Assembly: GCA_913062955.1 (NCBI GenBank)
Contig: CAJXZP010000043.1
Location: forward strand, 1-34,516
Direction of reading: 5' to 3'
DNA from: an uncultured Flavobacteriales bacterium
Lineage (GTDB): Bacteria > Bacteroidota > Bacteroidia > Flavobacteriales_G > Salibacteraceae
DNA: 34,516 bases
The notes beneath the pieces are model-generated. The model was given only the letters and a program-made list of their open reading frames with translations. It did not search any database and was not told where the DNA came from. The position numbers and the translations under genes were made by a program. Numbering within the stretch: the first letter of the stretch is position 1; every line of letters begins with the position of its first letter. Positions 14,255-29,309 of the stretch are shown piece after piece.

Positions 14255-15790
14255 TTAATACAAATCCCAATTTCCGTTTAAATAGTACCGATACAGAACC
14301 GGATCATTAATGGTGTTAATTTGAATATTGGCGGTATCTACCAGCGGTTTCCCAAAGGAAGTAATCAACGTAATAGACTCTTGATTCAACCATTTGTTGT
14401 TTAAAGACGAATAATCCGTTTCCATCATTTTATGGATCATTTGAGGTTTAGTTAAACTCTTGCTCCCAATAATCCACCCCCATTCCCCCAAGGTAAGCAC
14501 TTGGTTATGTAAAGGCAAAGTATTAAACCCAACATTGGCCATGGTTTTTTCAATGCAATGAAAAGCCTTGGTGGCATAATAGGGACTCCCCGACTGGGTG
14601 ATGATGTGTCCGTTGGGACGTAACATCCAAAAGGCCATTTGATAAAACTCACGGGTGTAGAGTTTATTTAACGAAATGTTTTTAGCATCTGGAAGATCAA
14701 CAATAATTAAATCGTAAAAGGACTGGCTTTTTTCTAAAAACAGAAATCCATCTTGATTTAAAATAGTGACCCGGGAGTCGTATAAAGCCGAATCGTTATA
14801 GGTTAACAACCCTTCAAAGGTTTTACCCAAACGCGTCATGGCAGGATCTAAATCTACCAGGGTAATATTTTTGATTCCGGAGTACTTCAACAGCTCCTTT
14901 ACGTTAAAACCGTCTCCCCCACCAATGATTAGAATATCGGTATGTTCGGGAGTTAAGGCCATAACTGGATGCACCATAGGCTCATGGTACAACCATTCAT
15001 CAAAGGTACTTAATTGTTGATTTCCATTAATAAACAGCCAAAAATGTTCTTTCCATTGGGTGACCGTTATTTTTTGAAATGGCGTTTGTTCAGAATATAC
15101 AATTTTGTCTTTATAGCGTGATTGTTCGCCAAACAACATGATTTGATCGGAATACAGATAGGCAACCGACAATAAGGCGATAATTCCAACCGATACAGCG
15201 CGTACCCCGTTTTTAAATTCGGGGTAATAACTTTTGTAACGTTCGAATAAAATGAGGGCGACTACAAAATTTAAGGCTCCAAAAACAAAAGCGGTATTGG
15301 TAATTCCTAAGTGAGGCAACCCCCAGAAAGCAAATAACAAACCTCCAATTAAACTCCCTACATAATCCCACGACATGATGTTAGAAATGTTTCTATCTAA
15401 GGATTCATGTTTTTCGTTTAAACGAGTCGCTAAAGGAATTTCAAATCCAATACAAAAACCTACGAGTAAGGCCAATCCATATATAACGATATGAATAAAC
15501 TCTGTTTTTGCAGCTATGGAAAACACCCATAAAGGGGATAAACTGATTAAAAGAGAAAGCGAAAATTCAACAGCAATAAAGGTGACCAGTAAATGTTTAT
15601 CTACAAAACGACTCACCTGGCTACCTACGCCCATGGCGAATAACATAATGGACAATACAACGGTCCATTGAATAATGGTGTCGCCAATAAAATAGGACGC
15701 TAATGTGGAGAGAATAAACTCAGACGTTAGCCCTGATATTCCGGTAGCAAAAATGGCTAATTTTAACCATATTGCATTCTTACTTTTCAT
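14255..15790 (-). CDS. speE: Second membrane-fused long-form polyamine aminopropyltransferase
   Basis: A 511-residue paralogue of the 8863-10404 product with the same layout: about seven membrane helices to residue ~220, then the SpeE fold. Motifs: TFDEWLYHEPMVHPVM, IIGGGDGFNVKELLKY, VDLDPAMT, NQDGF, VDLPDAKN then LNKLYTREFY, and SPYYATKAFHCIEKT, all typical of long-form SpeE. In this copy the usual DP of the catalytic loop reads DA (LPDAK), and the SAM loop keeps GGGDG where the other copy has GAGDG. The start is a normal ATG 24 bases after the DUF350 stop. It is the last gene of the large minus-strand cluster, which also supplies SpeD, the source of decarboxylated SAM. The two copies may act on different acceptors. 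Confidence 0.88.
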   Translation of the reverse strand: MKSKNAIWLKLAIFATGISGLTSEFILSTLASYFIGDTIIQWTVVLSIMLFAMGVGSQVSRFVDKHLLVTFIAVEFSLSLLISLSPLWVFSIAAKTEFIHIVIYGLALLVGFCIGFEIPLATRLNEKHESLDRNISNIMSWDYVGSLIGGLLFAFWGLPHLGITNTAFVFGALNFVVALILFERYKSYYPEFKNGVRAVSVGIIALLSVAYLYSDQIMLFGEQSRYKDKIVYSEQTPFQKITVTQWKEHFWLFINGNQQLSTFDEWLYHEPMVHPVMALTPEHTDILIIGGGDGFNVKELLKYSGIKNITLVDLDPAMTRLGKTFEGLLTYNDSALYDSRVTILNQDGFLFLEKSQSFYDLIIVDLPDAKNISLNKLYTREFYQMAFWMLRPNGHIITQSGSPYYATKAFHCIEKTMANVGFNTLPLHNQVLTLGEWGWIIGSKSLTKPQMIHKMMETDYSSLNNKWLNQESITLITSFGKPLVDTANIQINTINDPVLYRYYLNGNWDLY

Positions 15791-15814
15791 GTACCAAGTA
15801 CTATTATGGCTTGA

Positions 15815-16684
15815 TTAAGCGAAGCTTAAACAGATCAAAACGGAACCACCTACGTATGCAAAAGCTTCAATGATAGCTGCACCCACATTTGGTTTTTCTT
15901 GATTTACAATTTCATCGGTCAAGCTTCTTTTTGAAAGTAAAATCTTATCCGCTAATAAACGAGCGATGGGTAAAAGCACCAATCCAATGCCCGTTTCTAA
16001 TACCAGGTTTTCACCTACCAAAAACCAGCTATCCGCTTCCATTTGCACGCCAAAACGAACCAAGTTACCCATGGCGATAACAGCCCCACTAAAACCGACT
16101 CCTACCGCTACATTCTTTTTTAAGATATGCTCATGAATATCATACGGAGTGATTAAATTGTAAATTCTACTGGCTAATAAAAGAGATACTTGAGCCAAGG
16201 CCCATAACAAAATTATTCCGCCATAATTATCTTGATTCTCGGCTAATACCCCATGAATAATTAGTCCGTTAGCCACATTCATGGCTCCTTCAATTACCCC
16301 AGTTCCAACATTTTCATCTTCAATAATTTCCTTTTTTATGGAGAATTTATTTAAGATTATTTTGTCGGAGATTAATACCGATAAGTTTAAAAGAACAATA
16401 GAAAACAAACCATATGCCATGATATTAATCACGTTATCTAGCAAATGGTCCACTCCGGAACCTGCAAACACACTAGAAATAGCGATAATAACACCGATAT
16501 AATACCCTACGTTAGCAAATGAAAAAGCAAGATTATCTTTTTCTAATAACTCGTGATCCATATCAATGTCTCTATGAAACAATTGGTATACCTTTTTACC
16601 AATATAGAACAGTAAGAAACTGACTAACAAATAGATTAAAGCTGTCAATAAATTATCTAAAGTAGTTAGAAAATTGAATTCCAT
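15815..16684 (-). CDS. Double DUF350 (YjfL-like) membrane protein
   Basis: A 289-residue protein with about eight predicted helices in two similar halves (~1-140 and ~145-289), each resembling DUF350. The halves share FANVGYYIGVIIAISSVFAG and VGVGFSGAVIAMGNLVRFG, followed by segments with I/L-DKI-L-x-K (SDKIILNKFS and ADKILLSKRS). E. coli YjfL is a single DUF350 unit next to the PspA paralogue YjfJ, so the context here agrees. The biochemical role of DUF350 is unknown. It sits 31 bases after the lipoprotein gene and 24 bases before speE, consistent with one transcript. Confidence 0.85.
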   Translation of the reverse strand: MEFNFLTTLDNLLTALIYLLVSFLLFYIGKKVYQLFHRDIDMDHELLEKDNLAFSFANVGYYIGVIIAISSVFAGSGVDHLLDNVINIMAYGLFSIVLLNLSVLISDKIILNKFSIKKEIIEDENVGTGVIEGAMNVANGLIIHGVLAENQDNYGGIILLWALAQVSLLLASRIYNLITPYDIHEHILKKNVAVGVGFSGAVIAMGNLVRFGVQMEADSWFLVGENLVLETGIGLVLLPIARLLADKILLSKRSLTDEIVNQEKPNVGAAIIEAFAYVGGSVLICLSFA

Positions 16685-16715
16685 AATTTTAATATTTTTC
16701 AGATTAACGATTCAC

Positions 16716-17414
16716 TTATTTTCCAAAACCAGAACCTCTGGATCTTCCTCCAGAACGACTTCGAGAACCTGACCATCCCGATTTACTGGCTCTACGTTTG
16801 TAAAAATTAGGGTTAGATTTTTTAGTTTGAGCCGAATTCGTTCCATACATATGTCCGGTACCCTGCTTAGGTCCGTAATAGTTTCTAGAACCATAATACC
16901 CACCCGTACGGTACGAATTATATGCGCCCCTGTAAACGGGTCTATGCATCATCCCGAACATATGCGACATAAACATGTATTGGCCATAAAAAGCCCAAAA
17001 TGAATTCCCGTTATGGTTTCTCCATTCCCCATAATGCCTATCCCCTACATAGCGATACCCAGGAGGTGCCGCTACTTTAGAAAGTTTGCCATTTATATCT
17101 TTAGCCAATACAGTCATCCCGAGATTATTCTCATTTTTCCGGAAAAAATCACTATTAACTTCTTTCCAATTGGATGCGGTTTCATAGGGAAGAGAATCCT
17201 TCACACGGATCACCTTATACTTATGCTTATAGGTTTTGAAGAAAGTTCCATCCACATCCATATCGGCTAGAATTACCGAGTATTCCGGTTCATCTTCAAA
17301 TTCAATAATGTACTTATCCAGGGGTGTTTTTTCAAACTTTTTGCCCCCACAGCTCACCAACATAGTGGCCATAATGCCTACTAACCCGATTACAATTCTT
17401 AATTTCAATCTCAT
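16716..17414 (-). CDS. Lipoprotein with Y/F/M-rich centre and R/S/G-rich tail
   Basis: A 232-residue predicted lipoprotein. I chose the ATG at 17414 (MRLKLRIVIGLVGIMATM, then LVSC) because it gives a signal peptide with a lipobox, and it starts 10 bases after the DUF4178 stop; the longer frame would overlap that gene. The mature part has a globular segment (~25-110), then a low-complexity stretch FWAFYGQYMFMSHMFGMMHR and a tail of S, R and G ending SGFGK. E. coli YjfM and YgiB (DUF1190) are also lipoproteins with an FW/M-rich centre and a G/S/R tail, and YjfM neighbours the DUF350 protein YjfL. I suggest a functional counterpart; I cannot show homology. Confidence 0.78.
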   Translation of the reverse strand: MRLKLRIVIGLVGIMATMLVSCGGKKFEKTPLDKYIIEFEDEPEYSVILADMDVDGTFFKTYKHKYKVIRVKDSLPYETASNWKEVNSDFFRKNENNLGMTVLAKDINGKLSKVAAPPGYRYVGDRHYGEWRNHNGNSFWAFYGQYMFMSHMFGMMHRPVYRGAYNSYRTGGYYGSRNYYGPKQGTGHMYGTNSAQTKKSNPNFYKRRASKSGWSGSRSRSGGRSRGSGFGK

Positions 17415-17424
17415 TTTAGTTTTA

Positions 17425-17955
17425 TTAACGAGGTAAAATATTTGAAAACTCAAATTCCTTTATATAACTACCTACCGCAGCACCATAACTTTCTTCTCCC
17501 CATCTATCAATAGAGAGCATTTCTTTTGAACTTGGCTCTACATACATCCAATTCACTAGTTCTGAACCCTCTTCGTTATCATTTTCATAACAAATACCCA
17601 TACTAGATTCTTTACGATAATACGTTTTTCCTTTATAATCTAACCTATCTGGAGCTTCATCATTTTTGGTAATTTGATTAACTAAATTAGAGTTCACATC
17701 TTCCATAGCAATTTTTTGCCAGGTAGAACAAACTAATTCATCCTCCTCTTCCACACTCAAATACATGGTTTCATTACCGGCATCCATAAAATACTCTTTT
17801 GAAAAGAAATTATTTCCCCAATCGTAGGTATATACCTTTTTTACTTCCCAGGTTTTCATAAAATAATCTACCATGAAGCCTTTTTCTAGCTCATTTAAGG
17901 TGAAATTTATTTTAACCTCTGATTTCTTTTTCTTTAAAAAGTCGAATATTCCCAT
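17425..17955 (-). CDS. DUF4178 domain protein
   Basis: A 176-residue soluble protein, M-G-I-F-D-F-L-KKKK at the start, then a beta-rich segment. The parts FMVDYFMKTWEVKKVYTYDW, MYLSVEEEDELVC, and the end LSIDRWGEESYGAAVGSYIK with EFEFSNILP fit DUF4178: a W/Y motif, a structured repeat, then a final G-x-x-I-x-x-x-x-F pattern. DUF4178 proteins are often encoded beside DUF350, PspA-like and polyamine genes. The function is unknown. It lies 11 bases after the K+ channel gene and 10 bases before the lipoprotein gene. Confidence 0.75.
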   Translation of the reverse strand: MGIFDFLKKKKSEVKINFTLNELEKGFMVDYFMKTWEVKKVYTYDWGNNFFSKEYFMDAGNETMYLSVEEEDELVCSTWQKIAMEDVNSNLVNQITKNDEAPDRLDYKGKTYYRKESSMGICYENDNEEGSELVNWMYVEPSSKEMLSIDRWGEESYGAAVGSYIKEFEFSNILPR

Positions 17956-17966
17956 AATCTTAATTT

Positions 17967-18782
17967 TTAATGTTCACATCCACAATTGGGACATACCTGT
18001 TTTTTAGTTTTTTCTTCTTCGTTTAATTCCTCTGGTTTAGAAGCCGCAAATCCATTGGCTAAAATTCCCGCAGGGAGTGCAAATATTCCAATTCCTAAAA
18101 TGGCCATAAGTCCCGCCAAAAAACGACCTAAATCGGTCACGGGATACACATCTCCATAACCTACGGTAGTCAAAGTGGCTACCCCCCACCACATGGTAGC
18201 AGGGATACTCGAAAAGCTTTCTGGTTGTATTTCGTTCTCTACAAAATACATCAAACTAGAGGAAATCACCAATAAGGTTAATACGGCAAAAAGGGAAACA
18301 ACCAACTCTTCTCTAGAGGTTTCCATTACCCTTTTAATCTGTTTAAAAGCTTTATTGTATCTCGATAATTTCAATAATCGAAACAATCGTAATAAACGAA
18401 TTGCACGAACAATTCTGAAATCCGCTTTTATAAAGAACGGCAAGAAAGCAGGTAGGAATGAAATTAAATCCACCAAGGAGTAAAAGGAAAAGAAATAACT
18501 TATCCGACCAGTAATGGATTTATGGTACTTTGGGTTTTCGGTTATGGACCAAATCCTTAAGAGGTATTCGATAGAAAACACTCCAATTGAGAACCACTCA
18601 AAGACCAAAAAATAATCGCCAAAATCGGTACGAATCCATTTCACGGACTCCACAATTACTGAAACGACATTCAAGAATATTAAAGTGACAATAAAAATAT
18701 CTACCCGCCTACTCAAAAGGTCGTCTTTCGCCCCCTTTTCTAGGACCTGGTAACACCGTTTTTTTAAGCTCTTATACCCCAT
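17967..18782 (-). CDS. Voltage-gated-type potassium channel with CPNCGCEH tail
   Basis: A 271-residue six-helix ion channel. A voltage-sensor S4 is visible as RIVRAIRLLRLFRLLKLSR, with arginines every third residue, preceded by S1-S3 (IVTLIFLNVVSVIVES; FSIEYLLRIWS; FYSLVDLISFLPAF). The pore helix WWGVATL leads into the selectivity filter TVGYGD (206-211), followed by S6 (LMAILGIGIFALPAGILANG). Filter and S4 are intact, so K+ selectivity and voltage response are likely. The C-terminus EEKTKKQVCPNCGCEH ends in a cysteine/histidine cluster that could bind a metal or sense redox. The start overlaps the end of speD by 11 bases, coupling the two. Confidence 0.92.
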   Translation of the reverse strand: MGYKSLKKRCYQVLEKGAKDDLLSRRVDIFIVTLIFLNVVSVIVESVKWIRTDFGDYFLVFEWFSIGVFSIEYLLRIWSITENPKYHKSITGRISYFFSFYSLVDLISFLPAFLPFFIKADFRIVRAIRLLRLFRLLKLSRYNKAFKQIKRVMETSREELVVSLFAVLTLLVISSSLMYFVENEIQPESFSSIPATMWWGVATLTTVGYGDVYPVTDLGRFLAGLMAILGIGIFALPAGILANGFAASKPEELNEEEKTKKQVCPNCGCEH

Positions 18783-19146
18783 CTGCTTCTTTTAACTGAG
18801 GAATAAAGCCACGTTTAACGGTGGTGTAACTTGGTGATTTGGAATGTAGTTTATCGACCAAATAATGGTACGTTTTCAAGTAATCCATACTGGTATTACA
18901 TGTAAAAAAATCGACCGCAGCATACCCGTGTTCTGGCCAGGTATGAATGGCTAAATGACTCTCTGCCACTACTACTACACCGGTAACTCCCTGGGGAGCA
19001 AACTGATGAAAAACAGACTTAATAATGGTAGCTTTAGACGCTAATGCGGCTTCTTCCATAACGACTTCCAATCGTTTTAAATCATCCAATGTTTCTACGG
19101 AACAATCCGAAAACTCCATCAAAATATGTACACCCAATTCATTCAT
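18772..19146 (-). CDS. speD: S-adenosylmethionine decarboxylase proenzyme
   Basis: A 124-residue prokaryotic short-form (class 1B) pyruvoyl-dependent S-adenosylmethionine decarboxylase. It makes decarboxylated SAM, the aminopropyl donor used by the SpeE enzymes at 8863-10404 and 14255-15790. The block VVVAESHLAIHTWPEHGYAA includes the autocleavage site between E62 and S63, so S63 becomes the pyruvoyl group; H68 and C83 (DFFTC) are in the expected catalytic places, and all three agree with the numbering I recall for the Thermotoga maritima enzyme. Length fits the family. It is the only speD in the window and is translationally linked to the K+ channel gene by an 11-base overlap. A separate promoter may lie at 19181-19188. 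Confidence 0.95.
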   Translation of the reverse strand: MNELGVHILMEFSDCSVETLDDLKRLEVVMEEAALASKATIIKSVFHQFAPQGVTGVVVVAESHLAIHTWPEHGYAAVDFFTCNTSMDYLKTYHYLVDKLHSKSPSYTTVKRGFIPQLKEADGV

Positions 19147-19180
19147 TATATCCCCACTGTTTCGATCCTTAACTACCCCA

Positions 19181-19188
19181 CAAAAATA
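19181..19188 (-). promoter_or_regulatory. Possible -7 box (TATTTTTG) for speD
   Basis: On the minus strand, TATTTTTG matches the Bacteroidota -7 consensus TAnnTTTG. It lies about 35 bases before the speD ATG in a 68-base gap. No good TTG -33 box stands at the usual distance, so support is modest. Confidence 0.35.
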
Positions 19189-19214
19189 GACTTCAAGTTT
19201 AGATTATACCATGG

Positions 19215-19685
19215 TTAAAATAACCAATCCAATAAACGGATCATTAAACTTTTCTCCGGTTCAAAACCAGGGGTATTTTTTAACTCCGTTAATTTTTCTT
19301 CAAACTTTTCAAATTTGATAAATTTATTCAAGTGATTGGCCATATAACTGGTCAATGCTTCCACTTCATGTTTAGGCAAACCCAATGAAATACCTAATTC
19401 CGAACATAGCTTAATTTCTTTATCATGCGCTTGCATATCCATTTTCATCATGGTTAGTATGCGCCAAAAATACTCCACCTTTTCTTCATAGGTTTCTGGG
19501 GGTATTATTTCAAAGGAGTCCAAGTCATTTTTCATTACAGAAATCATGGCATGATCCACCCCTAATGTATTGGACAACATGGTGATATTCATTTGTTCGA
19601 AATGATTCACATGATCATCTATTCTTGCCATTTTTATTAATGCAAGAATCAGGGAGGTTTTAGCATCTACAGTTACGGTACTCAT
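19215..19685 (-). CDS. TerB-like protein 2
   Basis: A 156-residue all-helical protein resembling the TerB/tellurite-resistance and DjlA N-terminal fold. The motifs are ALIKMARIDDHVNHFEQ and ILTMMKMDMQAHDKEIKLC, which line up with ALIKIAKADGK-like and ILTMMSLDMDANEEEIKIC in the gene just upstream, so the two are paralogues. The first acidic loop (IDDHVN) lacks the standard DG. Its C-terminal ~35 residues (KFEKFEEKLTELKNTPGFEP) are an extension. TerB proteins are thought to work at membrane-linked stress complexes. The gene starts 17 bases after a strong hairpin (19703-19726), so its expression may depend on read-through. Confidence 0.72.
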   Translation of the reverse strand: MSTVTVDAKTSLILALIKMARIDDHVNHFEQMNITMLSNTLGVDHAMISVMKNDLDSFEIIPPETYEEKVEYFWRILTMMKMDMQAHDKEIKLCSELGISLGLPKHEVEALTSYMANHLNKFIKFEKFEEKLTELKNTPGFEPEKSLMIRLLDWLF

Positions 19686-19702
19686 TTGATTGGGTTTTAA
19701 AA

Positions 19703-19726
19703 AAGGCCAAAGAAAACTTTGGCCTT
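19703..19726 (-). terminator. Strong hairpin with U-tract between the two TerB genes
   Basis: AAGGCCAAAG, loop AAAA, CTTTGGCCTT is a perfect 10-base stem. Read on the minus strand it is followed by TTTTTT, two of which lie in the stem base, so it fits an intrinsic terminator. It lies 10 bases after the stop of TerB-like protein 1 and 17 bases before the ATG of protein 2, inside an otherwise tight cluster. It may end the upstream transcript or limit read-through. Confidence 0.75.
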
Positions 19727-19736
19727 GATTTATTAA

Positions 19737-20132: not shown

Positions 20133-20148
20133 ATATTCTATTTTATGG

Positions 20149-20289
20149 TTATTTAAACTTATTATTTTTATAGCGATATCCAATCCAGGCTCCTATTCCT
20201 AAAATCAAAACAATAAACCCTACTTTAAATGCCAATTGATAAATTAGCATGACGGCTAGCACGATTATTACGACTCTTAATATGCTCAT
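20149..20289 (-). CDS. 46-residue small membrane protein
   Basis: A short ORF in the gap between the giant ATPase and TerB genes, ATG at 20289, TAA at 20149-20151. It has one or two hydrophobic helices: VVIIVLAVMLIYQLAF, then VGFIVLILGIGAWIGY, ending in a basic YKNNKFK tail. The spacing supports it: 19 bases after the ATPase stop and 16 before the TerB start. No known family is recognised. Small membrane proteins often tune or tether larger complexes, so it may link the AAA+ ATPase to the membrane, but that is inference. Confidence 0.65.
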   Translation of the reverse strand: MSILRVVIIVLAVMLIYQLAFKVGFIVLILGIGAWIGYRYKNNKFK

Positions 20290-20308: not shown

Positions 20309-23300
20309 CTATTTTGAATCGGATAATACATCTTTAATTCCTATTAATCCATCCGATACCGACTCCATTTGTGCTAATATCATCGTCATTTGATTTTGAT
20401 TTTCACCAAAGCCTTGCATCTTCTGGTTTCGTTGAAACTTCGTTTTGATTTCTTCCCAACGAATTTGTTCTTCTTGAGTGATCCAACCTACCATTTCTTT
20501 AAACTTTAACAAATTGGCTTCTGCACTAGTTGTTAAAGTTTGCGATTCACTTTCGTACGCGCTCAATAATATGGTTTTCAATTCCGCATCATTCATTATA
20601 GGAATAATTTTCTCCGCAATTTTATTCATATTCCGATACGAGCCTTGCAATTTAAAAGACGGTTCTACTCGATATTGATCTTCCATTGCGGCCGATTTGA
20701 TGTATTGCATATTCACCTTCAAAATTACATCTCTCACGACAAATAGCTTTTGAATAACAGCTACATAATCGTTAATTTCATCCACCGAATGGTTCGACTC
20801 AAAATCAAGTCCGTCTCTACTTCCTGATTCGGCCATCTTGATCAGGGTATACAGGTCTTTTTGGCTTTTACCCGCAAGTTTACCCAAAGTAGCATTGGAG
20901 GTTAAACAGTTTTCGATGTAACTCGATTCAAAGGCATCGCTGGTATCTCCAATAATATCACCGAGGTTATAGATGTCCGCTCTATTGGCCAACATATCTG
21001 GAATTTTAAATTTATCTCCACTCTCGGTATAGGGGTTACCCGCCATCACCACACATACTTTCTTCCCTCTTAAATCATATGTTTTTGAACGTCCTTTATA
21101 CACCCCTTCAATTTTACGTTGCCCATCACTTAAGGAAATGAATTTTTGCAAAAACTCCGGGTGACAGTGTTGAATATCATCCAAATAAATCATGACATTA
21201 TCGCCCATTTCAAAACCTAAATTAAGTTTTTGAATTTCTTCACGAGCTCCCGCATTGGGTGCTTGTTCGGGATCTAACGAAGTGGTTTCATGCCCTAGAG
21301 AGGGACCATTAATTTTTAAGAATATGATACCGAGTCGGCTAGCGATATACTCCATCAAGGTAGTTTTCCCGTAACCTGGAGGAGAAATCAGTAATAACAT
21401 TCCCATTAAATCGGTCCGTTTGTTTTCACCTGCAGTTCCGATTTGTTTGGCCAAGTTATCTCCAATAATGGGAAGGTAAACCGAATTGATTAATTTGTTC
21501 CGTACAAAGGAACTCATTACTCGGGGTTTTAAATCCGCTAGTTTTAAATCTTCTTTGTACGATTCTATATAGTGTTTTTTTAAGTTTTTAAACTGAATAA
21601 ACGCAGGGATATCTACCGCCATAAACTGAGATAATCGTTCGGTAAACTCTTTGTAATCAACCACCATTTTTTGGTTAACCACCCGTTGATGGGTGCCATT
21701 CAAACCTGTTACAGACTTCACTAAAGTGGTATCTACCATTTGGTTTTTATGTACCGATTGGGTGACTAATAAAATGGACGCTTCATTAATCAGATCGGGA
21801 CTTACCGCTGTATCTGTTTCAGAATAGGCTTTTAGCCAGCTTTTGACAATAGAGAATTTTGCAGCTGATTTACTTAAACTCCCTACGGAAGTCTTGAAGG
21901 TTTTACTTAACTGATTATCATTCAGATAATCTTGAAAACCGGTACATAAATCAATCGCTTCCTTACCATTACTAAAGGTATTATTTGTGGCTAATTCAAT
22001 AAACAAATAACGAGAGGCCTCCAACATATCTACTTCGGTAAACAGATGCTCGGAAGTGGCGAATCCCTTAATTTCCACCGCTAATTTTTGAATTAAATCG
22101 TCAAAAACACGGGTATTTGGAAAAGCTTCAATGATGTTTCCTACGGCTTTGATTTGATGATTAATCAAAGCTTTGGTATCATCAGACACATACAATTCCC
22201 AATAAAACGCAGCACATACCCGGACATTGGGAGCGAATTTTAAAATCCCACCATAATGCGACATTTGAACGAGCTCTTTCAAAATGACCAAAGCATCCCG
22301 ATCATGCACCCCTTTCACATAGCCTTCTTCGTAACGGGGGGCCATGATTGTGCTCACAAAGTCCAAGAGTTTCTCATCGGACCAAGTAATCACATCGGCT
22401 ACTACATGCGGTGGATTACGTAATTCTTCAAAAACAATCCAAGCCAAATACTCGGCTCTATACACGTTTTTGTTTTCGGAAACGACTACCTGATCCCATA
22501 CCGAACGGGTAGCTAAGAACTCTTCTTTTTCAATTACCTCAAAGAAATTGGTACCTGTAATATGGAAATACATTTCCTTATTACGAGGTACGATCGATAA
22601 ATCTAAATTTTGGTTATTGACAGAAAATTGGTGCTTGCCAAAATTGATAATTCCTTCCCCTGAATATAATTCCGTTTTATCACGTAATTGACGTGCCGCC
22701 TCTTCTTTCGTGGATTTCAGTTTACTCTGAATATCATCCGATTTTACGGTATCTCCAATCTCGATAAGTTCGTCAATAATGTTCCGAAGTTTATCCACCA
22801 TTAAATCGGAGGCCATATAACTATGAATGGCATTCATACTATCTAAGGCTGCTAAACGACTGGCTACGCCAGAAATAATGCGATCGGCAGAAGATTGTAG
22901 TCTGGCGGTTTTCTTATTAAGTTTTTCGATGAGATATACCTTTCGAGATTCAAAGGCATTATAGATTTCTTCTCGTTTTTCGGAAATCTTCTTTAAATAC
23001 TCGTCAAAATCACTGAATTTACCTTCTAGTTCTTCTAATTGAATCAGTAATTTGGTCAAGTACTCCTCACATTTCTGACTGGTATCCGAAATATCTAAGT
23101 AATTGACAACTCCCTGGCTAATTAAACGCAATTGCGAATGAAATACCGCCTCGCCTTCCTCCAATTGCAGTTCTTTACGTTTCCGTTTTAGTACCGCACT
23201 TATTTGATTGAATCGAGAGTAGATCTCCGAGATATTGTTAATGATTTTTGTGGTTTGGGTCGCATCTTCAATTTTTAGATCACTGACTACCTCAATTAAC

Positions 23301-25198
23301 ATTTCGAGTTCTTTAGATGTTCTCAAAACACCTTCTTCCAGCTCGCTTACTTCAATCCCTTTTTTTACCGTTTCAATGGAATGATTAAAACCATCAATTT
23401 TTTCATGGTAAAAGGATAAAGCTCCCTCCTTTAAAAGAAAATCCACACATTGATTCGAAACTTTTTCGTTTTGTTTGGCTAATTCTTCCTCGTATGTTTG
23501 GATGAGATTTACATCTACATAGCGTAAATCATTTAAGGAAATCACTTCTCCCCGAGCCACACGTAATTGGGCAATTAATTGCACAAATTCGTTAACATGC
23601 TCTTTTTTAGCGGTTTTTATATCCGACATCAAATCGTTAAACTTGATGCTAAAGTTATTTTGCTCTTCTAAGGTGCTTTTTTTGATTTTCACCACCTTAT
23701 CAAATTCATCAATAGCTAAAGAAGCAGAAGCCTTTATCTCTAGTAATGGCTCCGATAAATTCTGGGTTTCAGAATCCGTCAACCAATAGTACGAATCCAC
23801 TATATCGGTGGTTTTCTTAACTAAATCGACATATAGATTTGCGTAGGAATCCTCTTTAGAGAGCAAGTTCAATACCTCATGGCATTCGGCCATGGCACGC
23901 ACCACATCTTTATTCCCAATCTTAGCGATTAAAGAGCTTGAATTTACGGTTGTTGGTTCATTATTACTTTCAAATGGGGTTTGCCATATTTGAACCACAT
24001 GATGATTCTGAGGGTCTTCTTCTCCTTTGAAATAGCATAATTCTCCATCTGGGAACAAAGAGTAACCGTGACAAACGGTGGGAATATTGACTTGTTGAGA
24101 AATCAAGTTATATAACAACAAAGCATAAGTTCCGGATTGAAGATCACTAAAAATATACAGGAAGTCTTCTCCATTAGGGGAAGCAACGGTTTCTTGAAAT
24201 TGCATAGGTGCACTATCCAAATCAAAAATTTTGTACTCTCCGGTTTGTAGGTAAAACCCTTTGGGGAATATGACCCCATGATCATCGGGTAATAACACAC
24301 ATGAATTTCCAATTTCATCTACTCGAACTGCTTCCGCGATTTTACTGTTGTAGATTATGTAACGAAAAGAATTTTCTTTATAGGGTTTAATTTTTAGAAA
24401 AACTAGATTTCCAACAATAGCGTAAAAAACCTCGGCATCATCTAAAGTTTGATCGGCATAATCTACCGGTTCATTGTAAATTCCTTTACCATCCGCTGTA
24501 TTATCCTCAATTTTGATGGTTAAATCTCCCTTTACGGTTTCTACAAATACCAGATCCTCGATAGAAATATGCGGATGAATACCATCCCGATACATATTTC
24601 GAGTCGTCCGTTTCCATGTAAATTCATGTTGATTGGGATAAACAACCTCATGATCACTCCGATTATCGATGTATTCTAAGCCCTCCTCTAATACCCGCCA
24701 TTTAAAGGACTTAAAGTCATTGGCATCCTTACCGATTTGGAATACCATGTAGAGATACGGACCTAGTTCTGCAAATTTTGAAAACTGTGTTTCTTTATAG
24801 TATTTGTATAACTCGCTAAAATCGGCTAAAAATTTAGCGGAGTTGATCAGCTTATTGTCTTTAACATGAAACGCATGTTCTTGGTATTCATATACACTAA
24901 ATACATCATTAATATGTGTTTCGGTCCGCAAGCCCATATGCACATTGTACCCAAAAATGAATTGGTCGCCTATCGAAACCATATCTCTAGGAATGCACTT
25001 ATTATCGGTGGTGATTCGTTCGGTTGCTAACAGTTTGGTTTCTACGGCACCGAAAACTTTCTTTCTAGCAGAATTTAATTCCGCTAGACGAGTTTGCAAT
25101 TCATCCCCGTGTTTGTTTAACCTATTCTGAATAATTTCATAGGTGCCCTGCTCCAGGGTGGATGTATTTTTATTTTCGTCTTCTACTGAATCTGACAT
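20309..25198 (-). CDS. Giant AAA+ ATPase with coiled coils (DNA repair ATPase-type annotation)
   Basis: A 1629-residue cytoplasmic protein of the class often labelled DNA repair ATPase, though nothing here proves a DNA role. Order: an N-terminal short coil ~15-45; a beta-rich region ~60-420; long coiled coils ~500-860 rich in E/K/L; a helical middle; and a MoxR-like AAA+ module ~1255-1480. In the module: Walker A SPPGYGKTT (K1278), Walker B YLDD (D1340, D1341), sensor-1 AGNPY (N1388), and an arginine-finger candidate in LANRAD (R1406). The C-terminal ~100 residues are again helical. ATP hydrolysis looks intact. Placed behind flotillin and PspA and ahead of TerB, it is probably a remodelling engine for the membrane complex. 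It starts 111 bases after the flotillin gene. Confidence 0.85.
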   Translation of the reverse strand: MSDSVEDENKNTSTLEQGTYEIIQNRLNKHGDELQTRLAELNSARKKVFGAVETKLLATERITTDNKCIPRDMVSIGDQFIFGYNVHMGLRTETHINDVFSVYEYQEHAFHVKDNKLINSAKFLADFSELYKYYKETQFSKFAELGPYLYMVFQIGKDANDFKSFKWRVLEEGLEYIDNRSDHEVVYPNQHEFTWKRTTRNMYRDGIHPHISIEDLVFVETVKGDLTIKIEDNTADGKGIYNEPVDYADQTLDDAEVFYAIVGNLVFLKIKPYKENSFRYIIYNSKIAEAVRVDEIGNSCVLLPDDHGVIFPKGFYLQTGEYKIFDLDSAPMQFQETVASPNGEDFLYIFSDLQSGTYALLLYNLISQQVNIPTVCHGYSLFPDGELCYFKGEEDPQNHHVVQIWQTPFESNNEPTTVNSSSLIAKIGNKDVVRAMAECHEVLNLLSKEDSYANLYVDLVKKTTDIVDSYYWLTDSETQNLSEPLLEIKASASLAIDEFDKVVKIKKSTLEEQNNFSIKFNDLMSDIKTAKKEHVNEFVQLIAQLRVARGEVISLNDLRYVDVNLIQTYEEELAKQNEKVSNQCVDFLLKEGALSFYHEKIDGFNHSIETVKKGIEVSELEEGVLRTSKELEMLIEVVSDLKIEDATQTTKIINNISEIYSRFNQISAVLKRKRKELQLEEGEAVFHSQLRLISQGVVNYLDISDTSQKCEEYLTKLLIQLEELEGKFSDFDEYLKKISEKREEIYNAFESRKVYLIEKLNKKTARLQSSADRIISGVASRLAALDSMNAIHSYMASDLMVDKLRNIIDELIEIGDTVKSDDIQSKLKSTKEEAARQLRDKTELYSGEGIINFGKHQFSVNNQNLDLSIVPRNKEMYFHITGTNFFEVIEKEEFLATRSVWDQVVVSENKNVYRAEYLAWIVFEELRNPPHVVADVITWSDEKLLDFVSTIMAPRYEEGYVKGVHDRDALVILKELVQMSHYGGILKFAPNVRVCAAFYWELYVSDDTKALINHQIKAVGNIIEAFPNTRVFDDLIQKLAVEIKGFATSEHLFTEVDMLEASRYLFIELATNNTFSNGKEAIDLCTGFQDYLNDNQLSKTFKTSVGSLSKSAAKFSIVKSWLKAYSETDTAVSPDLINEASILLVTQSVHKNQMVDTTLVKSVTGLNGTHQRVVNQKMVVDYKEFTERLSQFMAVDIPAFIQFKNLKKHYIESYKEDLKLADLKPRVMSSFVRNKLINSVYLPIIGDNLAKQIGTAGENKRTDLMGMLLLISPPGYGKTTLMEYIASRLGIIFLKINGPSLGHETTSLDPEQAPNAGAREEIQKLNLGFEMGDNVMIYLDDIQHCHPEFLQKFISLSDGQRKIEGVYKGRSKTYDLRGKKVCVVMAGNPYTESGDKFKIPDMLANRADIYNLGDIIGDTSDAFESSYIENCLTSNATLGKLAGKSQKDLYTLIKMAESGSRDGLDFESNHSVDEINDYVAVIQKLFVVRDVILKVNMQYIKSAAMEDQYRVEPSFKLQGSYRNMNKIAEKIIPIMNDAELKTILLSAYESESQTLTTSAEANLLKFKEMVGWITQEEQIRWEEIKTKFQRNQKMQGFGENQNQMTMILAQMESVSDGLIGIKDVLSDSK

Positions 25199-25309
25199 GT
25201 AAATAAATTAATGATTGGAAAATAGAAGGAATAGTCCCTCGAAATACTCTGTAATGTCTACATTCCCCAACTAATGAGAAATGCAGACACAGAAAGAAGT
25301 ATGTATTTT

Positions 25310-27454
25310 CTATTTCGTAATACCCAATGAATTTGGAGTTAAATCTCCAATTCCTGCGCTTTTTACTGCGGTCATTAATTCACTTAGTACACCATCCGTC
25401 TTTGGGTTTTTAGATTCTTGCATCATTTTAAATATCAAAGTCGAGATAGACAGATTCTTCAGATCATCGGAACTAATACCAAACTGGCCAATTAGATTCT
25501 TGATTTTCTCATTCAAGGAATTACCTTCAATTCCATCCATTAAACTCCCCTTTAAATCAGTTAAAGTTGCACTATTATCAATCGTTCTTTCCACTGCTTT
25601 CCCGTTTGAAATTGCCCCAATAATCTTATCAAAGAACACGGTTTCTCCACCAACGATATCAATTTTGGCCGTTTTCAATGCATTGGAAATAACCTCTGCT
25701 TGGGCATCCGCAATATCTTTCTGGATATGAATTTGAGCTAATTCAACTTCCTTTTGTTTATCCAAGTTCAATTTGAATTCCTCATGCTCTTTTCCAACAC
25801 CATCCAATTGCTTCATGGCATCGGCTTTTTGATGGATTCCATCGGCTTCTACATGGTATTTCTCTTTGCTTACCGCTGCCTCTGCTAAACCTTTCTTTTC
25901 ATCGGCTACTGCTTTCACTTCCACTACTTGAGCTGCAGCACTCCCCATCTCGACATCCGATTTGGCCTGTGCAGTCATTTTCGCTTCTATAGCTTTTGCT
26001 TCAGCAAATGCCATGGACTCAATAACAGATGCTTCTGCATCTCCTTCTTTTTCACGAGCCAATGCTTTTGCCTCTAGTACTTTTGCTTCCGCAATTCCCG
26101 TAGCCGCTTCACGCGCTGCATCTGCTTCGGCCATTACCTTAATGGCTTGTGCTCTTTGAATAGAAGAATCTTGTTCCGCTTTGGCATCAATCATAACCTG
26201 CTCCGCTTTAAACTCCGCAGATTTCTTTCCGGCTTCAGCCGATTTGATTTGTTGTACGAGATCAGACTCAGCCAACTCTTCTGCTTTGGTAATCGCGACC
26301 AATTTTTCACGATCCGCTTGTGATTTGGTCTTAGTATCTTTGATACTTTCTTCCTCTATCACCACTGTTTTTTCAATGGCCACACGCTCACGAATCACTT
26401 CTTGAATAATCTTCTTCTCTTCTTCAATCGCTTTTTCTTTTGAGATCTGAGCTAGGGTAACGATACGTTCTCTTTCGGTAACCTCCAGTAAGCGATCTTT
26501 CTCTACTTTCTCTGTTTCAACAGCAGCGGTTCTCTCTTTGTTTTTAGAAGCTACAATAACCTCTCTATCTCTATTTTGTTCGGCAATTTGAATTTCTTCA
26601 TCTGCAATAATGCGTGCCCGTTCAGACTTTAATTTTTCCTCTTCATGAACTTTTGCGATATCCGCTTCTTCCCGAGATTTAATGTTAGCCACTTCTCGTT
26701 TTTGACGCTCTTCCGTTTCGGCTAATTGTTTCTCTAGTTGAAGAATAGCTTCCCGCGCTTCTACATTTTGTTTCTTAATAATCTTCTCTTTATCCTTTTC
26801 AATTAGATTGGATTTAATTTTTTCTCGAGAGGTAATTTCAATAATTTTCTTAATCCCTTCTGCATCTAAGATATTCATCTCATCCATTTGATTAATGGGT
26901 GTTTGTTCCAAATAATCAATGGCGGCATCATCGAGTACATATCCATTCGAATCCGTACCTAAACTGTTCAAAATCTCCTCTCTAAAGTCATCTCTTTTAT
27001 TGTATAAATCCACAAAGTCAAACTTCTTACCTACCGTTTTTAGGGCTTCCGAAAATTTAGAATCAAATAAATTATTTAAAGCCTCCAAATCAGAAGCTCT
27101 TTCACAACCTACCGATTGTGCGACCTGGATCACATCCGTGTCCGTTTTATTAACTCGAACAAAAAAGGCTACTTTAATATCCGCTCGTAGGTTATCCTTA
27201 CACACTAATCCATCAGATCCATTACGTTCTATCAAAATGGTTTTTAAGGCGATATCCATTATTTCCAAACGGTGTAAAACCGGGTAAACCATAATTCCGT
27301 TAAAGGACACTTTTGTTCCTCCCACACCGGTACGCACTAAAGCCTGACCTTGAGATGCCTTGCGATACCATTTAGCCAGCATCGCTGCAGTGCCAAATAT
27401 CAATACTACGAATATTATTATCACCGTAAAAGTGACATTTCCAAACATTTCCAT
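25310..27454 (-). CDS. Flotillin-like SPFH protein (YqiK type)
   Basis: A 714-residue membrane-anchored scaffold. An N-terminal helix (~8-28, VTFTVIIIFVVLIFGTAAML) is followed by an SPFH/Band-7 domain (~30-200, with GGTKVSFNGIMVYPVLHRLE and DNLRADIKVAFFVRV), then a long coiled coil rich in E, A, K and R (~205-600) with flotillin-type EA repeats, and a helical C-terminus. Flotillins form oligomeric membrane microdomains. The gene just upstream is a YqiJ-like OB-fold protein, the same pair as yqiJ-yqiK in E. coli, 20 bases apart. The start may be the ATG at 27454 (MEMFG) or at 27448. The protein should organise the membrane platform of the cluster. Confidence 0.9.
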   Translation of the reverse strand: MEMFGNVTFTVIIIFVVLIFGTAAMLAKWYRKASQGQALVRTGVGGTKVSFNGIMVYPVLHRLEIMDIALKTILIERNGSDGLVCKDNLRADIKVAFFVRVNKTDTDVIQVAQSVGCERASDLEALNNLFDSKFSEALKTVGKKFDFVDLYNKRDDFREEILNSLGTDSNGYVLDDAAIDYLEQTPINQMDEMNILDAEGIKKIIEITSREKIKSNLIEKDKEKIIKKQNVEAREAILQLEKQLAETEERQKREVANIKSREEADIAKVHEEEKLKSERARIIADEEIQIAEQNRDREVIVASKNKERTAAVETEKVEKDRLLEVTERERIVTLAQISKEKAIEEEKKIIQEVIRERVAIEKTVVIEEESIKDTKTKSQADREKLVAITKAEELAESDLVQQIKSAEAGKKSAEFKAEQVMIDAKAEQDSSIQRAQAIKVMAEADAAREAATGIAEAKVLEAKALAREKEGDAEASVIESMAFAEAKAIEAKMTAQAKSDVEMGSAAAQVVEVKAVADEKKGLAEAAVSKEKYHVEADGIHQKADAMKQLDGVGKEHEEFKLNLDKQKEVELAQIHIQKDIADAQAEVISNALKTAKIDIVGGETVFFDKIIGAISNGKAVERTIDNSATLTDLKGSLMDGIEGNSLNEKIKNLIGQFGISSDDLKNLSISTLIFKMMQESKNPKTDGVLSELMTAVKSAGIGDLTPNSLGITK

Positions 27455-27474
27455 ATTATAATTTTTTTTAAGTT

Positions 27475-28113
27475 TTAGTTAATCGTTTCATAGGGTTCAA
27501 CGATGTAGTATCCTTCATTTTTGATATGATTCACTACTAACATTGTTTGGCCTCTTTTAATAGATCCTTTTTTTGTTTTTATATTTATTCGATAACTATT
27601 CCCGGAGATATTTACGTCTCCCTGCCCCATTTTAGAAGCATCTGAACCTACCACCACTTTACCTTCACGTCCCAGCAGGTCATCAGAACCTTCGGTATCT
27701 TGTTCTAGATAGACAAACATTTTCACAAAGGGAATGGTTAATGGTTTGGCAATAATTAAACTAACCACAAAATTAGGCACTAATAAAAGCAATGAAAATA
27801 GCACCGAAGAGTTGCCAATGATGTGATTACTCATAATCGAAATCACCCACATTGGAATGGCTAAAAAGGTTAAGAATACCATAAGCGGTATTTTGTCGAG
27901 GTTGAAGAAGCGTAAGATTTCATTTAACCAAGATACGGATGGCTCACTTGCTCCATCTATATCAACATCCGCATCGATATCCACGTCCACATCTACGGAA
28001 CTGACATCTACCGCTCCGAAGATGACTAGCATCCAGTAAAACAAAACAAAGACCAATAATAAGGTGGGCATAAAATTCACCCCAGAAAAGGACGCATGAA
28101 ATAGCTCGATCAT
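27475..28113 (-). CDS. YqiJ-like membrane protein with OB-fold C-terminus
   Basis: A 212-residue membrane protein: hydrophobic helices at ~15-33, ~75-95 and ~100-125, and a beta-rich OB-fold-like C-terminal domain (~145-212; LLGREGKVVVGSD, GSIKRGQTMLVV, YYIVEPYE). Between helix 1 and 2 lies an acidic stretch of alternating D and hydrophobics (VDVDVDIDADVDIDG) that could bind cations. It is the expected NfeD-like partner of the flotillin gene 20 bases downstream. It begins 16 bases downstream of a hairpin (28130-28157), and the ATG is at 28113. Confidence 0.83.
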   Translation of the reverse strand: MIELFHASFSGVNFMPTLLLVFVLFYWMLVIFGAVDVSSVDVDVDIDADVDIDGASEPSVSWLNEILRFFNLDKIPLMVFLTFLAIPMWVISIMSNHIIGNSSVLFSLLLLVPNFVVSLIIAKPLTIPFVKMFVYLEQDTEGSDDLLGREGKVVVGSDASKMGQGDVNISGNSYRINIKTKKGSIKRGQTMLVVNHIKNEGYYIVEPYETIN

Positions 28114-28129
28114 GTAGAATTAGTTTTAA

Positions 28130-28157
28130 ATGAGTTGCCCAAAGAAGGGCAACTCAT
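28130..28157 (-). terminator. 11-bp perfect hairpin after pspA
   Basis: ATGAGTTGCCC, loop AAAGAA, GGGCAACTCAT. It lies in the 78-base gap between pspA and the YqiJ-like gene. On the minus strand it is followed by TTAAAACTAA, a weak U-tract, so it may be a partial terminator or an mRNA-stabilising end that sets a higher PspA level than downstream genes. Confidence 0.6.
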
Positions 28158-28191
28158 ATGAATGTTAAATAAGGTTGGTACGGATTGAATA

Positions 28192-28899
28192 TTACTTATC
28201 CAATCCCATAGAAGCTTTTAAGGCAGCCAAATCATCGGATGCTTTAGACGCTGAATTCTCTTCTAATGCTTTATCGATATCCTCATCTACGCTACGGCTT
28301 TCATTGGCAATATCTCCATATGATTCTGCTAAAGCTTCCTCTTGTTCTACTTTATCTTTCATACGTTCCAACATAGAAACCGTACCGGAAGAATCAATTT
28401 GAGCCAATTGCTTGTTCAAGTTTTTAGTCGCACTACTTACCTTCACTCTCGCTTTTAAGGTTTTTAGTTCAGACTCCCATTTACCAATATTGGTTCTAAT
28501 TTTTTTGATATTACCATCGAGTTGACCTACCGATTTATCAAAACGACCTTGTTCTTTTAAAGCATCTGATGCCAAGCGATTGTTATCATCTTTTAAGCTC
28601 AATGCCTCAGTAGCTAAGCGATCCGCTTCTTTGGGATCCATTTCATTTTTTTGCGCACGTTTTAATAACAACATGGCTTTACCTTCGTAATCCTTCGCTT
28701 TCTCACTATAGGTTTGATGATCGTTTCTGGAACGAATGGCCATCGCTTTCACTTCCGCCAAAGCACGTAAGCTTTTGTCTAAATCCTCTTTCATATCGCG
28801 AATACCTTGTTCGGTCAATTTAATTGGATTTTCTAATTTATCTACTGCAGAATGTGCTTCTGACTGTCCTATCTTAAATAATCTATTGAAAAAATTCAT
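28192..28899 (-). CDS. pspA: PspA/IM30 family membrane-stress protein
   Basis: A 235-residue coiled-coil protein of the PspA/Vipp1 (IM30) family, which coats and repairs stressed membranes as helical or ring oligomers. It begins MNFFNRLFKIGQSEAHSAVD with an amphipathic N-terminal helix, continues with LTEQGIRDMKEDLDKSLRAL, long heptad-rich helices and a helical C-terminus (SKASDDLAALKASMG). Length is near the ~220-residue norm. It lies 11 bases after the YbjN/CesT-like gene and is closer to E. coli YjfJ in context than to PspA of the pspF-controlled operon. No PspF-like regulator is in the window. Strong expression relative to downstream genes is plausible because of the following hairpin. 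Confidence 0.93.
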   Translation of the reverse strand: MNFFNRLFKIGQSEAHSAVDKLENPIKLTEQGIRDMKEDLDKSLRALAEVKAMAIRSRNDHQTYSEKAKDYEGKAMLLLKRAQKNEMDPKEADRLATEALSLKDDNNRLASDALKEQGRFDKSVGQLDGNIKKIRTNIGKWESELKTLKARVKVSSATKNLNKQLAQIDSSGTVSMLERMKDKVEQEEALAESYGDIANESRSVDEDIDKALEENSASKASDDLAALKASMGLDK

Positions 28900-28910
28900 C
28901 TGTTTAATTT

Positions 28911-29309
28911 TTAATTGTTTTGTGAAAATTGGATTAATTCGTCAGAATATTCCGACAATAAAAGGGTTAAAGAATTAATGGAACCTTCTAGTTCATTAAT
29001 ATCTAAAGTCCCGATTTGAAGTGTATCTCTAAATATGAGTTTTTCTCCGGTTTCATCGAGCACAAATGCCCCATGAATAATATCACGATTCTTCTGCAGA
29101 AGTTTCTTAAATATACCTGGATGTTTATCCGAAACATCCAAAATATGTTGCTCCATAATTAAGATTGGGTCCGCACAACCCAACACAAAATTCTTCAAGC
29201 CTACACTCTCATCTTCAATAACTAAGATACTATCTTCTTTATTTTCTAATACAATAGAATGTCCAAGTTCGGTTACATAATCTTTTACTTTATCAAAACT
29301 ATTTGTCAT
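28911..29309 (-). CDS. YbjN/CesT-like small protein upstream of pspA
   Basis: A 132-residue soluble alpha/beta protein. The pattern is of the YbjN / type III chaperone-like (CesT) fold: an N-terminal helix, strands (SILVIEDESVGLKNFVLG), a long helix, LLQKNRDIIHGAFVLDETGE and LIFRDTLQIGTLDINELEGS, then a final helix. It stands just ahead of pspA with an 11-base gap, the place held by yjfI (DUF2170) in E. coli, and is probably its counterpart, although I cannot confirm family membership. It is the first gene of the minus-strand cluster, with a likely promoter at 29348-29355. A protein-binding or chaperone role for PspA or another partner is inferred. Confidence 0.68.
   Translation of the reverse strand: MTNSFDKVKDYVTELGHSIVLENKEDSILVIEDESVGLKNFVLGCADPILIMEQHILDVSDKHPGIFKKLLQKNRDIIHGAFVLDETGEKLIFRDTLQIGTLDINELEGSINSLTLLLSEYSDELIQFSQNN

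What the first reader, a model, noticed from the sequence alone, without database searches (positions are those of the whole stretch)
14255..29309. A ~15 kb cluster uniting PspA, flotillin, a giant AAA+ ATPase, TerB proteins, a K+ channel and polyamine synthesis
Fourteen co-directional genes with mostly 10-70-base gaps combine the parts of E. coli yjfIJKLM (YbjN-like, PspA, DUF350, lipoprotein), yqiJK (OB-fold protein plus flotillin), TerB proteins, a Kv-type channel and SpeD/SpeE. It suggests that polyamine made at the membrane and K+ flux act together with a PspA/flotillin repair platform. Spermidine is known to block or gate some K+ channels, so a locally made polyamine that tunes the channel is one testable idea (inference).
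Basis: partly seen in the sequence, partly recalled or inferred. Interest (0 to 1): 0.85.

Follow-up and report, generated by a model that had tools for sequence, protein, structure and literature searches.

The report
Fused PspA-flotillin and aminopropyl-transfer membrane-stress cluster
A Bacteroidota genome joins two already described bacterial membrane-stress gene sets (a PspA/flotillin/giant-ATPase set and a set that makes and uses decarboxylated SAM beside a potassium channel) on one shared PspA pair, and the enzyme assumed to make spermidine there probably modifies some other, perhaps membrane, target.

Summary
The genes are real: thirteen same-strand ORFs plus a 46-aa membrane ORF fill 14255-29309. 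They are two modules described by Ravi et al. 2024 (PMC11237479): module 1, CesT/Tir-PspA-YqiJ-flotillin-AAA; module 2, SpeD, Kv channel, DUF4178, lipoprotein, DUF350, membrane-fused SpdSyn. Module 2 often carries its own CesT-PspA; here one module-1 dyad, with the only PspA in the genome, heads both. The same kind of fusion arose separately in Cytophagales, and in a related MAG the modules lie side by side, so adjacency is not accidental. Yet they are separable: a same-genus genome has module 1 and no SpeD, DUF350 or SpdSyn, and the window's only strong terminator-like hairpin lies between the TerB genes, so one long transcript is doubtful. 'Polyamine made at the membrane' is not supported: no putrescine-forming decarboxylase was found, and the SpdSyn domain keeps its dcSAM-side and catalytic residues but has a different, conserved amine-side motif. 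More likely it aminopropylates another acceptor. Spermidine gating of the channel has no sequence support. A facing SpdSyn/FAD-oxidase cassette (8863-13003) was missed. New variant of a known kind.

The parts
28911..29309 (-). CesT/Tir-like chaperone (YjfI-type partner of PspA)
   Evidence: Pfam CesT_Tir_1 3.8e-52
28192..28899 (-). PspA/IM30 (ESCRT-III-type), YjfJ-like; only PspA found in this genome
   Evidence: Pfam 1.8e-39; one match in G000; groups with the module-1 PspA of a same-genus genome, 100/96
28130..28157 (-). strong hairpin in the PspA-YqiJ gap without a T run; possible attenuator or mRNA 3' stabiliser
   Evidence: -19.6 kcal/mol, z -7.1
27475..28113 (-). YqiJ/YuaF-like membrane protein with OB/NfeD-like C-terminus
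   Evidence: weak Pfam YqiJ_N; family profile hits E. coli YqiJ 2.4e-11
25310..27454 (-). flotillin-like protein (YqiK relative)
   Evidence: BLASTP to E. coli YqiK 3e-46
20309..25198 (-). giant AAA+ ATPase: DUF3686, DUF7902, C-terminal AAA
   Evidence: Pfam 2.5e-185, 6e-26, 5e-8; AAA model nearest MoxR-type NorQ/CbbQ, Z 13.7, moderate model
20149..20289 (-). 46-aa single-pass membrane protein; similar small ORFs follow the AAA gene in relatives
   Evidence: similar small ORFs in L026, L037, L028, L048 and between PspA and SpeD in L176, L177
19737..20132 (-). TerB2 (start corrected to ATG 20132)
   Evidence: Pfam TerB 1.8e-7; next to AAA also in L026, L037 and same-genus G296
19703..19726 (-). 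predicted intrinsic terminator: 10-bp perfect stem, then a T run
   Evidence: -15.4 kcal/mol, z -4.9; the only - strand site in the window passing a perfect-stem/T-run scan
19215..19685 (-). TerB1
   Evidence: Pfam TerB 1.7e-6
18772..19146 (-). SpeD, class 1b S-adenosylmethionine decarboxylase with Ser/His/Cys intact
   Evidence: Pfam 3e-38, TIGR03330 132 bits; residues conserved in all associated SpeDs but one
17967..18782 (-). six-TM voltage-gated-type K+ channel, TVGYGD filter, C-terminal CxxC; overlaps SpeD by 11 nt
   Evidence: Pfam Ion_trans 1.7e-31; SpeD-channel pair conserved in L176, L177, L181, L184, L187, L188
17425..17955 (-). DUF4178 protein
   Evidence: Pfam 8.9e-22
16716..17414 (-). 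lipoprotein (lipobox LVSC; start corrected to ATG 17414), no Pfam family
   Evidence: conserved in module 2 of relatives
15815..16684 (-). DUF350 (YjfL-type) membrane protein, two repeats
   Evidence: Pfam 2e-50, 2 stretches
14255..15790 (-). membrane-fused aminopropyltransferase (MFS-SpdSyn 1)
   Evidence: NCBIfam PRK03612 531 bits over cut-off; motifs; fold match to SpdSyn Z 27
29527..30195 (+). divergent HTH regulator, conserved partner of the CesT-PspA dyad
   Evidence: 43 of 43 dyad-bearing ATPase loci with enough upstream sequence have it
30192..30878 (+). PLD-family protein, one HxK(x4)D motif
   Evidence: Pfam PLDc_2 2.7e-31; motif at residue 171; found in 11 of 63 ATPase loci
8863..10404 (+). 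second MFS-SpdSyn, in a convergent cassette
   Evidence: PRK03612 545 bits; same cassette in L026/L176 and L177
10408..11487 (+). unknown multi-pass membrane protein of the cassette
   Evidence: conserved with SpdSyn2 and FADox
11480..13003 (+). exported-type FAD oxidoreductase of the amine-oxidase superfamily
   Evidence: Pfam NAD_binding_8; homologue L028 passes the Amino_oxidase cut-off

Best explanation
The cluster is two membrane-stress modules hung on one CesT/Tir-PspA dyad. Module 1 (dyad, YqiJ, flotillin, giant AAA ATPase, small TM protein, TerB) is an assembly and remodelling platform: flotillin/YqiJ mark a membrane domain, PspA coats it, CesT/Tir chaperones PspA, and the ATPase assembles or disassembles the complex. 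Module 2 (SpeD, K+ channel, DUF4178, lipoprotein, DUF350, MFS-SpdSyn, plus the facing SpdSyn2/FAD-oxidase cassette) makes decarboxylated SAM and uses it, through a membrane-embedded aminopropyltransferase, to add an aminopropyl group to an acceptor other than putrescine, plausibly a membrane-associated molecule. Together they would change membrane charge and packing and K+ permeability under envelope stress. Shown by sequence: gene content, conserved active-site residues, repeated joining of the modules, sharing of one dyad. Inferred: the acceptor, the stress signal, and the physical cooperation of the modules.
For: Families. Module 1 recurs: of 63 ATPase loci with enough upstream sequence, 62 have flotillin, 61 YqiJ, 43 CesT-PspA, all 43 with the divergent HTH. 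Module 2 with its own dyad in L176 and L177. Fusion onto one dyad in the window and separately in Roseivirga, Fulvivirga and other Cytophagales (L028, L030, L043, L048, L075); their PspAs form their own group (97/91) while the window PspA is sister to a module-1-only genus member (100/96). In G336 both modules plus the oxidase cassette lie side by side, with only the module-2 dyad. The only PspA and only SpeD found in the genome are here. No putrescine-forming decarboxylase found: the sole PF02784 protein is a 408-aa DAP-decarboxylase-like protein, OKR and pyruvoyl ArgDC absent, nspC absent. SpdSyn domain keeps GGGDG, YHE and DxPD but has GEWGW where canonical enzymes have PxYPxG. Fold match to SpdSyn Z 27. 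Ravi et al. propose membrane dynamics tied to polyamine level or aminopropylation of other substrates.
Against: No functional data for any gene here. The genome is a 95.8% complete draft, so a putrescine pathway could be missing by chance, and putrescine can be imported. Both catalytic Asp of the amine site are kept, so a polyamine acceptor is not excluded. The predicted terminator between TerB2 and TerB1 and the absence of module 2 from same-genus G296 show the modules can act apart. Most ATPase loci (about nine in ten) lack module 2 nearby.
Confidence: 0.5

Rival explanations
1. True polyamine module: SpeD and MFS-SpdSyn make spermidine (or a related polyamine) at the membrane, exported or sensed locally, stabilising the membrane and tuning the channel.
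For: SpeD keeps its Ser/His/Cys; SpdSyn domain keeps the dcSAM motif and both Asp; NCBIfam names it polyamine aminopropyltransferase.
Against: No putrescine-forming enzyme found in the genome; same-genus G296 has a SpeA-like protein and agmatinase-like neighbour but no SpeD or SpdSyn, the reverse combination; the amine-side motif differs throughout the family; Li et al. 2019 (recalled abstract, not held) report no spermidine and no complementation of a SpdSyn deletion; no channel feature of polyamine block.
Confidence: 0.2
2. Two independent operons that are merely neighbours: module 1 ends at the terminator after TerB2, and TerB1/module 2 is a separate unit with separate regulation.
For: Only strong terminator-like site in the window lies between TerB2 and TerB1; module 1 alone in G296 and most Bacteroidota loci seen; in G303, G088 and G166 the modules lie far apart.
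Against: Tight fusion in Cytophagales with little but a small TM gene between AAA and DUF4178; adjacency in a second form in G336; module 2 here lacks its own dyad and the genome has one PspA.
Confidence: 0.25
3. A defence or conflict system (TerB, PLD, giant ATPase) against phage or toxins.
For: TerB and PLD occur in defence systems (general knowledge); weak PADLOC matches to DrmC for the PLD protein.
Against: No PADLOC model fits the ATPase, flotillin or TerB1 beyond noise; gene order conserved across families rather than patchy cargo.
Confidence: 0.05

Closest known systems
Ravi et al. 2024 group 1: CesT/Tir-PspA with YqiJ, flotillin and AAA+ ATPase (PMC11237479)
   Same: Same five genes in one directon; PLD and divergent HTH nearby
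   Different: Two TerB genes and a small TM gene added; module 2 attached downstream
Ravi et al. 2024 group 2: CesT/Tir-PspA with MFS-SpdSyn, DUF350 (8TM), lipoprotein, DUF4178
   Same: All four downstream genes present together
   Different: Own dyad missing, the module-1 dyad in its place; SpeD and a K+ channel included
Ravi et al. 2024 group 3 / E. coli yjfIJKLMC
   Same: K+ channel, DUF350, AdoMet decarboxylase and polyamine-type enzymes in PspA-related operons
   Different: No ATP-grasp ligase, DUF2491 or DUF1190; channel has no ligand domain; DUF350 has two repeats
Fused MFS-SpdSyn with AdoMetDC and DUF350 (Li et al. 2019, Biochem J; recalled, not held)
   Same: SpeD plus membrane-fused SpdSyn-like protein plus DUF350
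   Different: Here joined to the flotillin/ATPase module
E. coli YqiJ-YqiK
   Same: Flotillin and its OB-fold partner
   Different: Embedded with PspA and a giant ATPase

Membership tests
Ravi group 1 PspA operon | CesT/Tir, PspA, YqiJ/YuaF-like, flotillin-like, AAA+ ATPase in one directon | tested here: met
   order conserved in relatives
Ravi group 2 PspA operon | MFS-SpdSyn, 8TM DUF350, lipoprotein, DUF4178 together | tested here: met
Ravi group 2 PspA operon | own CesT-PspA dyad adjacent | tested here: not met
   one PspA in the genome, in module 1; tree places it with module 1
Ravi group 3 / E. coli yjf operon | GSP-synthetase-like ATP-grasp, DUF2491, DUF1190 | tested here: not met
   no such protein among the ORFs' Pfam matches; lipoprotein not related to YjfM
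Spermidine synthase (SpeE) | dcSAM motif GGGDG and catalytic Asp pair | tested here: met
Spermidine synthase (SpeE) | amine-side PxYPxG motif | tested here: not met
   GEWGW instead, family-wide; SpdSyn2 has a Tyr near the position
Spermidine synthase (SpeE) | makes spermidine from putrescine | not testable with these tools
   needs an enzyme assay
AdoMet decarboxylase class 1b | cleavage Ser, processing His, catalytic Cys | tested here: met
Kv-type K+ channel | Ion_trans domain and TVGYGD filter | tested here: met
Vps4-type ESCRT ATPase | AAA domain of the Vps4/meiotic clade | tested here: inconclusive
   best fold matches are MoxR-type NorQ/CbbQ, Z 13.7, on a moderate model; Pfam AAA and AAA_5 both match
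Flotillin | SPFH/Band_7 domain | tested here: inconclusive
   Pfam models miss it but YqiK homology 3e-46 covers residues 9-444

The most novel reading that the evidence does not exclude
MFS-SpdSyn is a membrane synthase, perhaps also a translocase, that adds aminopropyl groups to a lipid or other envelope molecule, an MprF-like charge-modifying machine fed by SpeD, with the K+ channel and PspA/flotillin platform forming one membrane-potential and surface-charge response.
Probability: 0.2. Interest if true: 0.85.

Novelty: new variant of a known kind. Interest (0 to 1): 0.45.

Why it matters
It shows that two PspA-linked operon types described apart can share one PspA/chaperone pair, and that this joining probably happened more than once, which makes a functional link between PspA remodelling and decarboxylated-SAM chemistry testable in a single locus. 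It also sharpens an open question: what a widespread membrane-fused 'spermidine synthase' really modifies. This genome shows almost no other polyamine genes, so any aminopropylated product would be easier to see.

Tried and rejected
Defence-system reading: PADLOC gave only weak or generic matches. Vps4-like ATPase: the fold look gave MoxR-type matches first, not decisive. Sigma-70 promoter scan: 49 sites against 57.6 expected, uninformative. Flavobacterial TANNTTTG boxes are fewer than chance overall; four lie in the 217-bp CesT-HTH gap, and one (19188) before SpeD without a proper upstream TTG, so no promoter is claimed for module 2. MFS-SpdSyn fold model (pLDDT 71) confirmed the SpdSyn domain, but no row listed was a membrane transporter; the TM domain was barely tested. 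Conserved polar TM residues: E75 in 19 of 22; others fall below the threshold when degenerate homologues are included, so the translocase idea stays inference. Li et al. 2019 is not held. Several genomes in the later searches were chosen because their loci looked fused, so fusion frequency was judged only from the 80 unselected ATPase loci: 5 fused, plus L026 with a different layout; 59 have at least 5 kb downstream.
Full report
WHAT IS THERE. The - strand of 14255-29309 holds, in transcription order: CesT/Tir, PspA, YqiJ-like, flotillin-like, giant AAA ATPase, a 46-aa membrane protein, TerB2, TerB1, SpeD, a Kv-type channel, DUF4178, a lipoprotein, DUF350 and a membrane-fused SpdSyn. That is 13 ORFs of ordinary size plus the small one. 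Gaps, read from the coordinates, are 11, 78, 20, 111, 19, 16, 51, 68, -11, 11, 10, 31 and 24 nt. An HTH gene and a PLD gene diverge upstream. A DNA search of the own genome first revealed the paralogue.

LITERATURE. Ravi et al. 2024 (PMC11237479) describe three relevant operon groups: CesT/Tir-PspA with flotillin, AAA ATPase and YqiJ; CesT/Tir-PspA with MFS-SpdSyn, DUF350, lipoprotein and DUF4178; and CesT/Tir-PspA with an ATP-grasp ligase, K+ channel and DUF350. They propose that PspA-based membrane dynamics respond to polyamine level or aminopropylation of other substrates. Their main text has no TerB and does not describe groups 1 and 2 joined; supplements were not readable. Li et al. 2019, cited there, is not held; from memory its abstract says the fusion does not complement a spermidine synthase deletion and that spermidine is absent. 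P. aeruginosa BacA, a YjfI relative, has a chaperone-like crystal structure and is in a PspA-containing operon (PMC10948618).

MODULE 1 IS COMMON. The DUF3686 ATPase is in 8 of 296 sampled phylum genomes; the seven besides this genome have HTH divergent from CesT-PspA-YqiJ-flotillin-AAA and no module 2 adjacent. Of 80 ATPase loci from named genomes, 63 have over 7 kb upstream; 62 carry flotillin, 61 YqiJ, 43 the dyad, and all 43 of these the HTH. Fewer carry PLD (11). TerB genes follow the ATPase in close relatives only (L026, L037, G296, weakly L074).

MODULE 2 IS SEPARATE BUT JOINS MODULE 1 REPEATEDLY. In G337 (L177) and G336 (L176) module 2 is CesT-PspA-small TM-SpeD-channel-DUF4178-lipoprotein-DUF350-MFS-SpdSyn, facing the oxidase cassette. 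In G336 a dyad-less module 1 lies just beyond that cassette. In L028, L030, L043, L048 and L075 (Roseivirga, Fulvivirga, other Cytophagales) module 1 runs into DUF4178-lipoprotein-DUF350-MFS-SpdSyn with one dyad at the head; in L028, L030, L048 and L075 under 220 nt separate the ATPase stop from DUF4178, with a small TM ORF reported there in L028 and L048; L043 has about 3 kb between. The PspA tree puts the window protein with the module-1 PspA of same-genus G296 (100/96) and the Cytophagales PspAs in their own group (97/91), so at least two joinings is the simpler count, though one gain plus losses is possible. In G337 and G336 the module-1 and module-2 PspAs form one group (100/100), showing that dyads are duplicated or exchanged between modules. 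The same-genus genome G296 has no SpeD, DUF350 or SpdSyn match at all. In G303, G088 and G166 the two kinds of module lie at distant places.

TRANSCRIPTION. Between TerB2 and TerB1, - strand, AAGGCCAAAG-TTTT-CTTTGGCCTT is followed by a T run: -15.4 kcal/mol, z -4.9, and it is the only - strand site in the whole window passing a perfect-stem plus T-run scan. The PspA-YqiJ gap holds a stronger hairpin (-19.6, z -7.1) with no T run, a possible device for making more PspA than downstream protein (inference). So two units, or attenuated read-through, are more likely than one uniform transcript. No promoter can be claimed for module 2.

IS IT POLYAMINE SYNTHESIS? SpeD retains the processing Ser and His and the Cys. 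The MFS-SpdSyn domains keep the dcSAM motif GGGDG (GAGDG in SpdSyn2), the YHE motif and a D-x-P-D pair, but throughout the non-degenerate family the canonical DS[TS]DPxGP stretch reads D[LF]PD[AP] followed by other residues, and the canonical PxYPxG stretch reads like VLTLGEWGW; in-phylum canonical SpeD-SpeE fusions (L214, L215) have the ordinary motifs. Which residues touch the amine is taken from general knowledge of SpdSyn structures, not tested here. The genome (95.8% complete) shows one fold-III decarboxylase, by length and sequence a DAP decarboxylase, no OKR-type enzyme of the right size, no pyruvoyl arginine decarboxylase, no nspC and no free SpdSyn with a strong score. G296 shows the reverse: a SpeA-like protein followed by an agmatinase-like protein, no SpeD. 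So dcSAM is probably used on an acceptor that is not home-made putrescine. Import of putrescine, or an unrecognised source, cannot be excluded. The fold model agrees with SpdSyn (Z 27.1, 250 aligned, 2.8 A).

THE CHANNEL. It is a six-TM channel with TVGYGD, no RCK or cyclic-nucleotide domain, no acidic residue in S6 and a C-terminal CxxC. SpeD followed directly by the channel is conserved in L176, L177, L181, L184, L187 and L188, the strongest hint that dcSAM chemistry and K+ flux are functionally tied. Nothing in the sequence singles out spermidine as the tie.

THE ATPASE. The C-terminal AAA model (pLDDT 73) matches MoxR-type NorQ and CbbQ first (Z 13.7 and about 13), then dynein and Clp. These Z values are modest and partly tied. 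A MoxR-like remodeller is a fair guess; a Vps4-like one is not excluded.

VERDICT. Real, conserved beyond chance, largely anticipated by published work. What is added: one dyad serving both modules, repeated fusion, the TerB and small-TM additions, the facing oxidase cassette, and sequence and genome-content evidence against simple spermidine synthesis.

Noticed in passing
L214, L215 (G338 C141:31321, G344 C1:1493627): SpeD and a canonical SpdSyn domain lie in one open frame of about 430 aa, a SpeD-SpeE fusion in Bacteroidota.
   Followed up: partly
L232, L233, L234, L239: A degenerate class of MFS-SpdSyn (GGENG or GGEMG in place of GGGDG) occurs after short SpeD-like and/or channel genes with the membrane protein and FAD oxidase; its dcSAM site may be lost.
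   Followed up: partly
window 1108-8668, - strand: Two very large repeat-rich surface-type proteins with repeated 'CDS-TW-DG-TY' units and C-terminal secretion-type domains.
   Followed up: no
L026:9356-9970: An extra ORF, weakly DUF3137-like, between flotillin and the ATPase in a close relative, absent from the window.
   Followed up: no
L026:5153-5926 and L177:12089-12865: A 257-aa membrane-type protein with no Pfam family next to SpdSyn2 in two relatives.
   Followed up: no
L176:10070-10456: Another TerB protein follows HTH-PLD divergent from the module-2 dyad in G336.
   Followed up: no
window 13038-14180: Acyltransferase-3 gene about 95 nt after MFS-SpdSyn, same strand, not found beside it in the relatives examined.
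   Followed up: partly
window 30900-32237: AAA_14/DUF4143 ATPase next to the PLD gene, resembling PADLOC PDC-S01.
   Followed up: no
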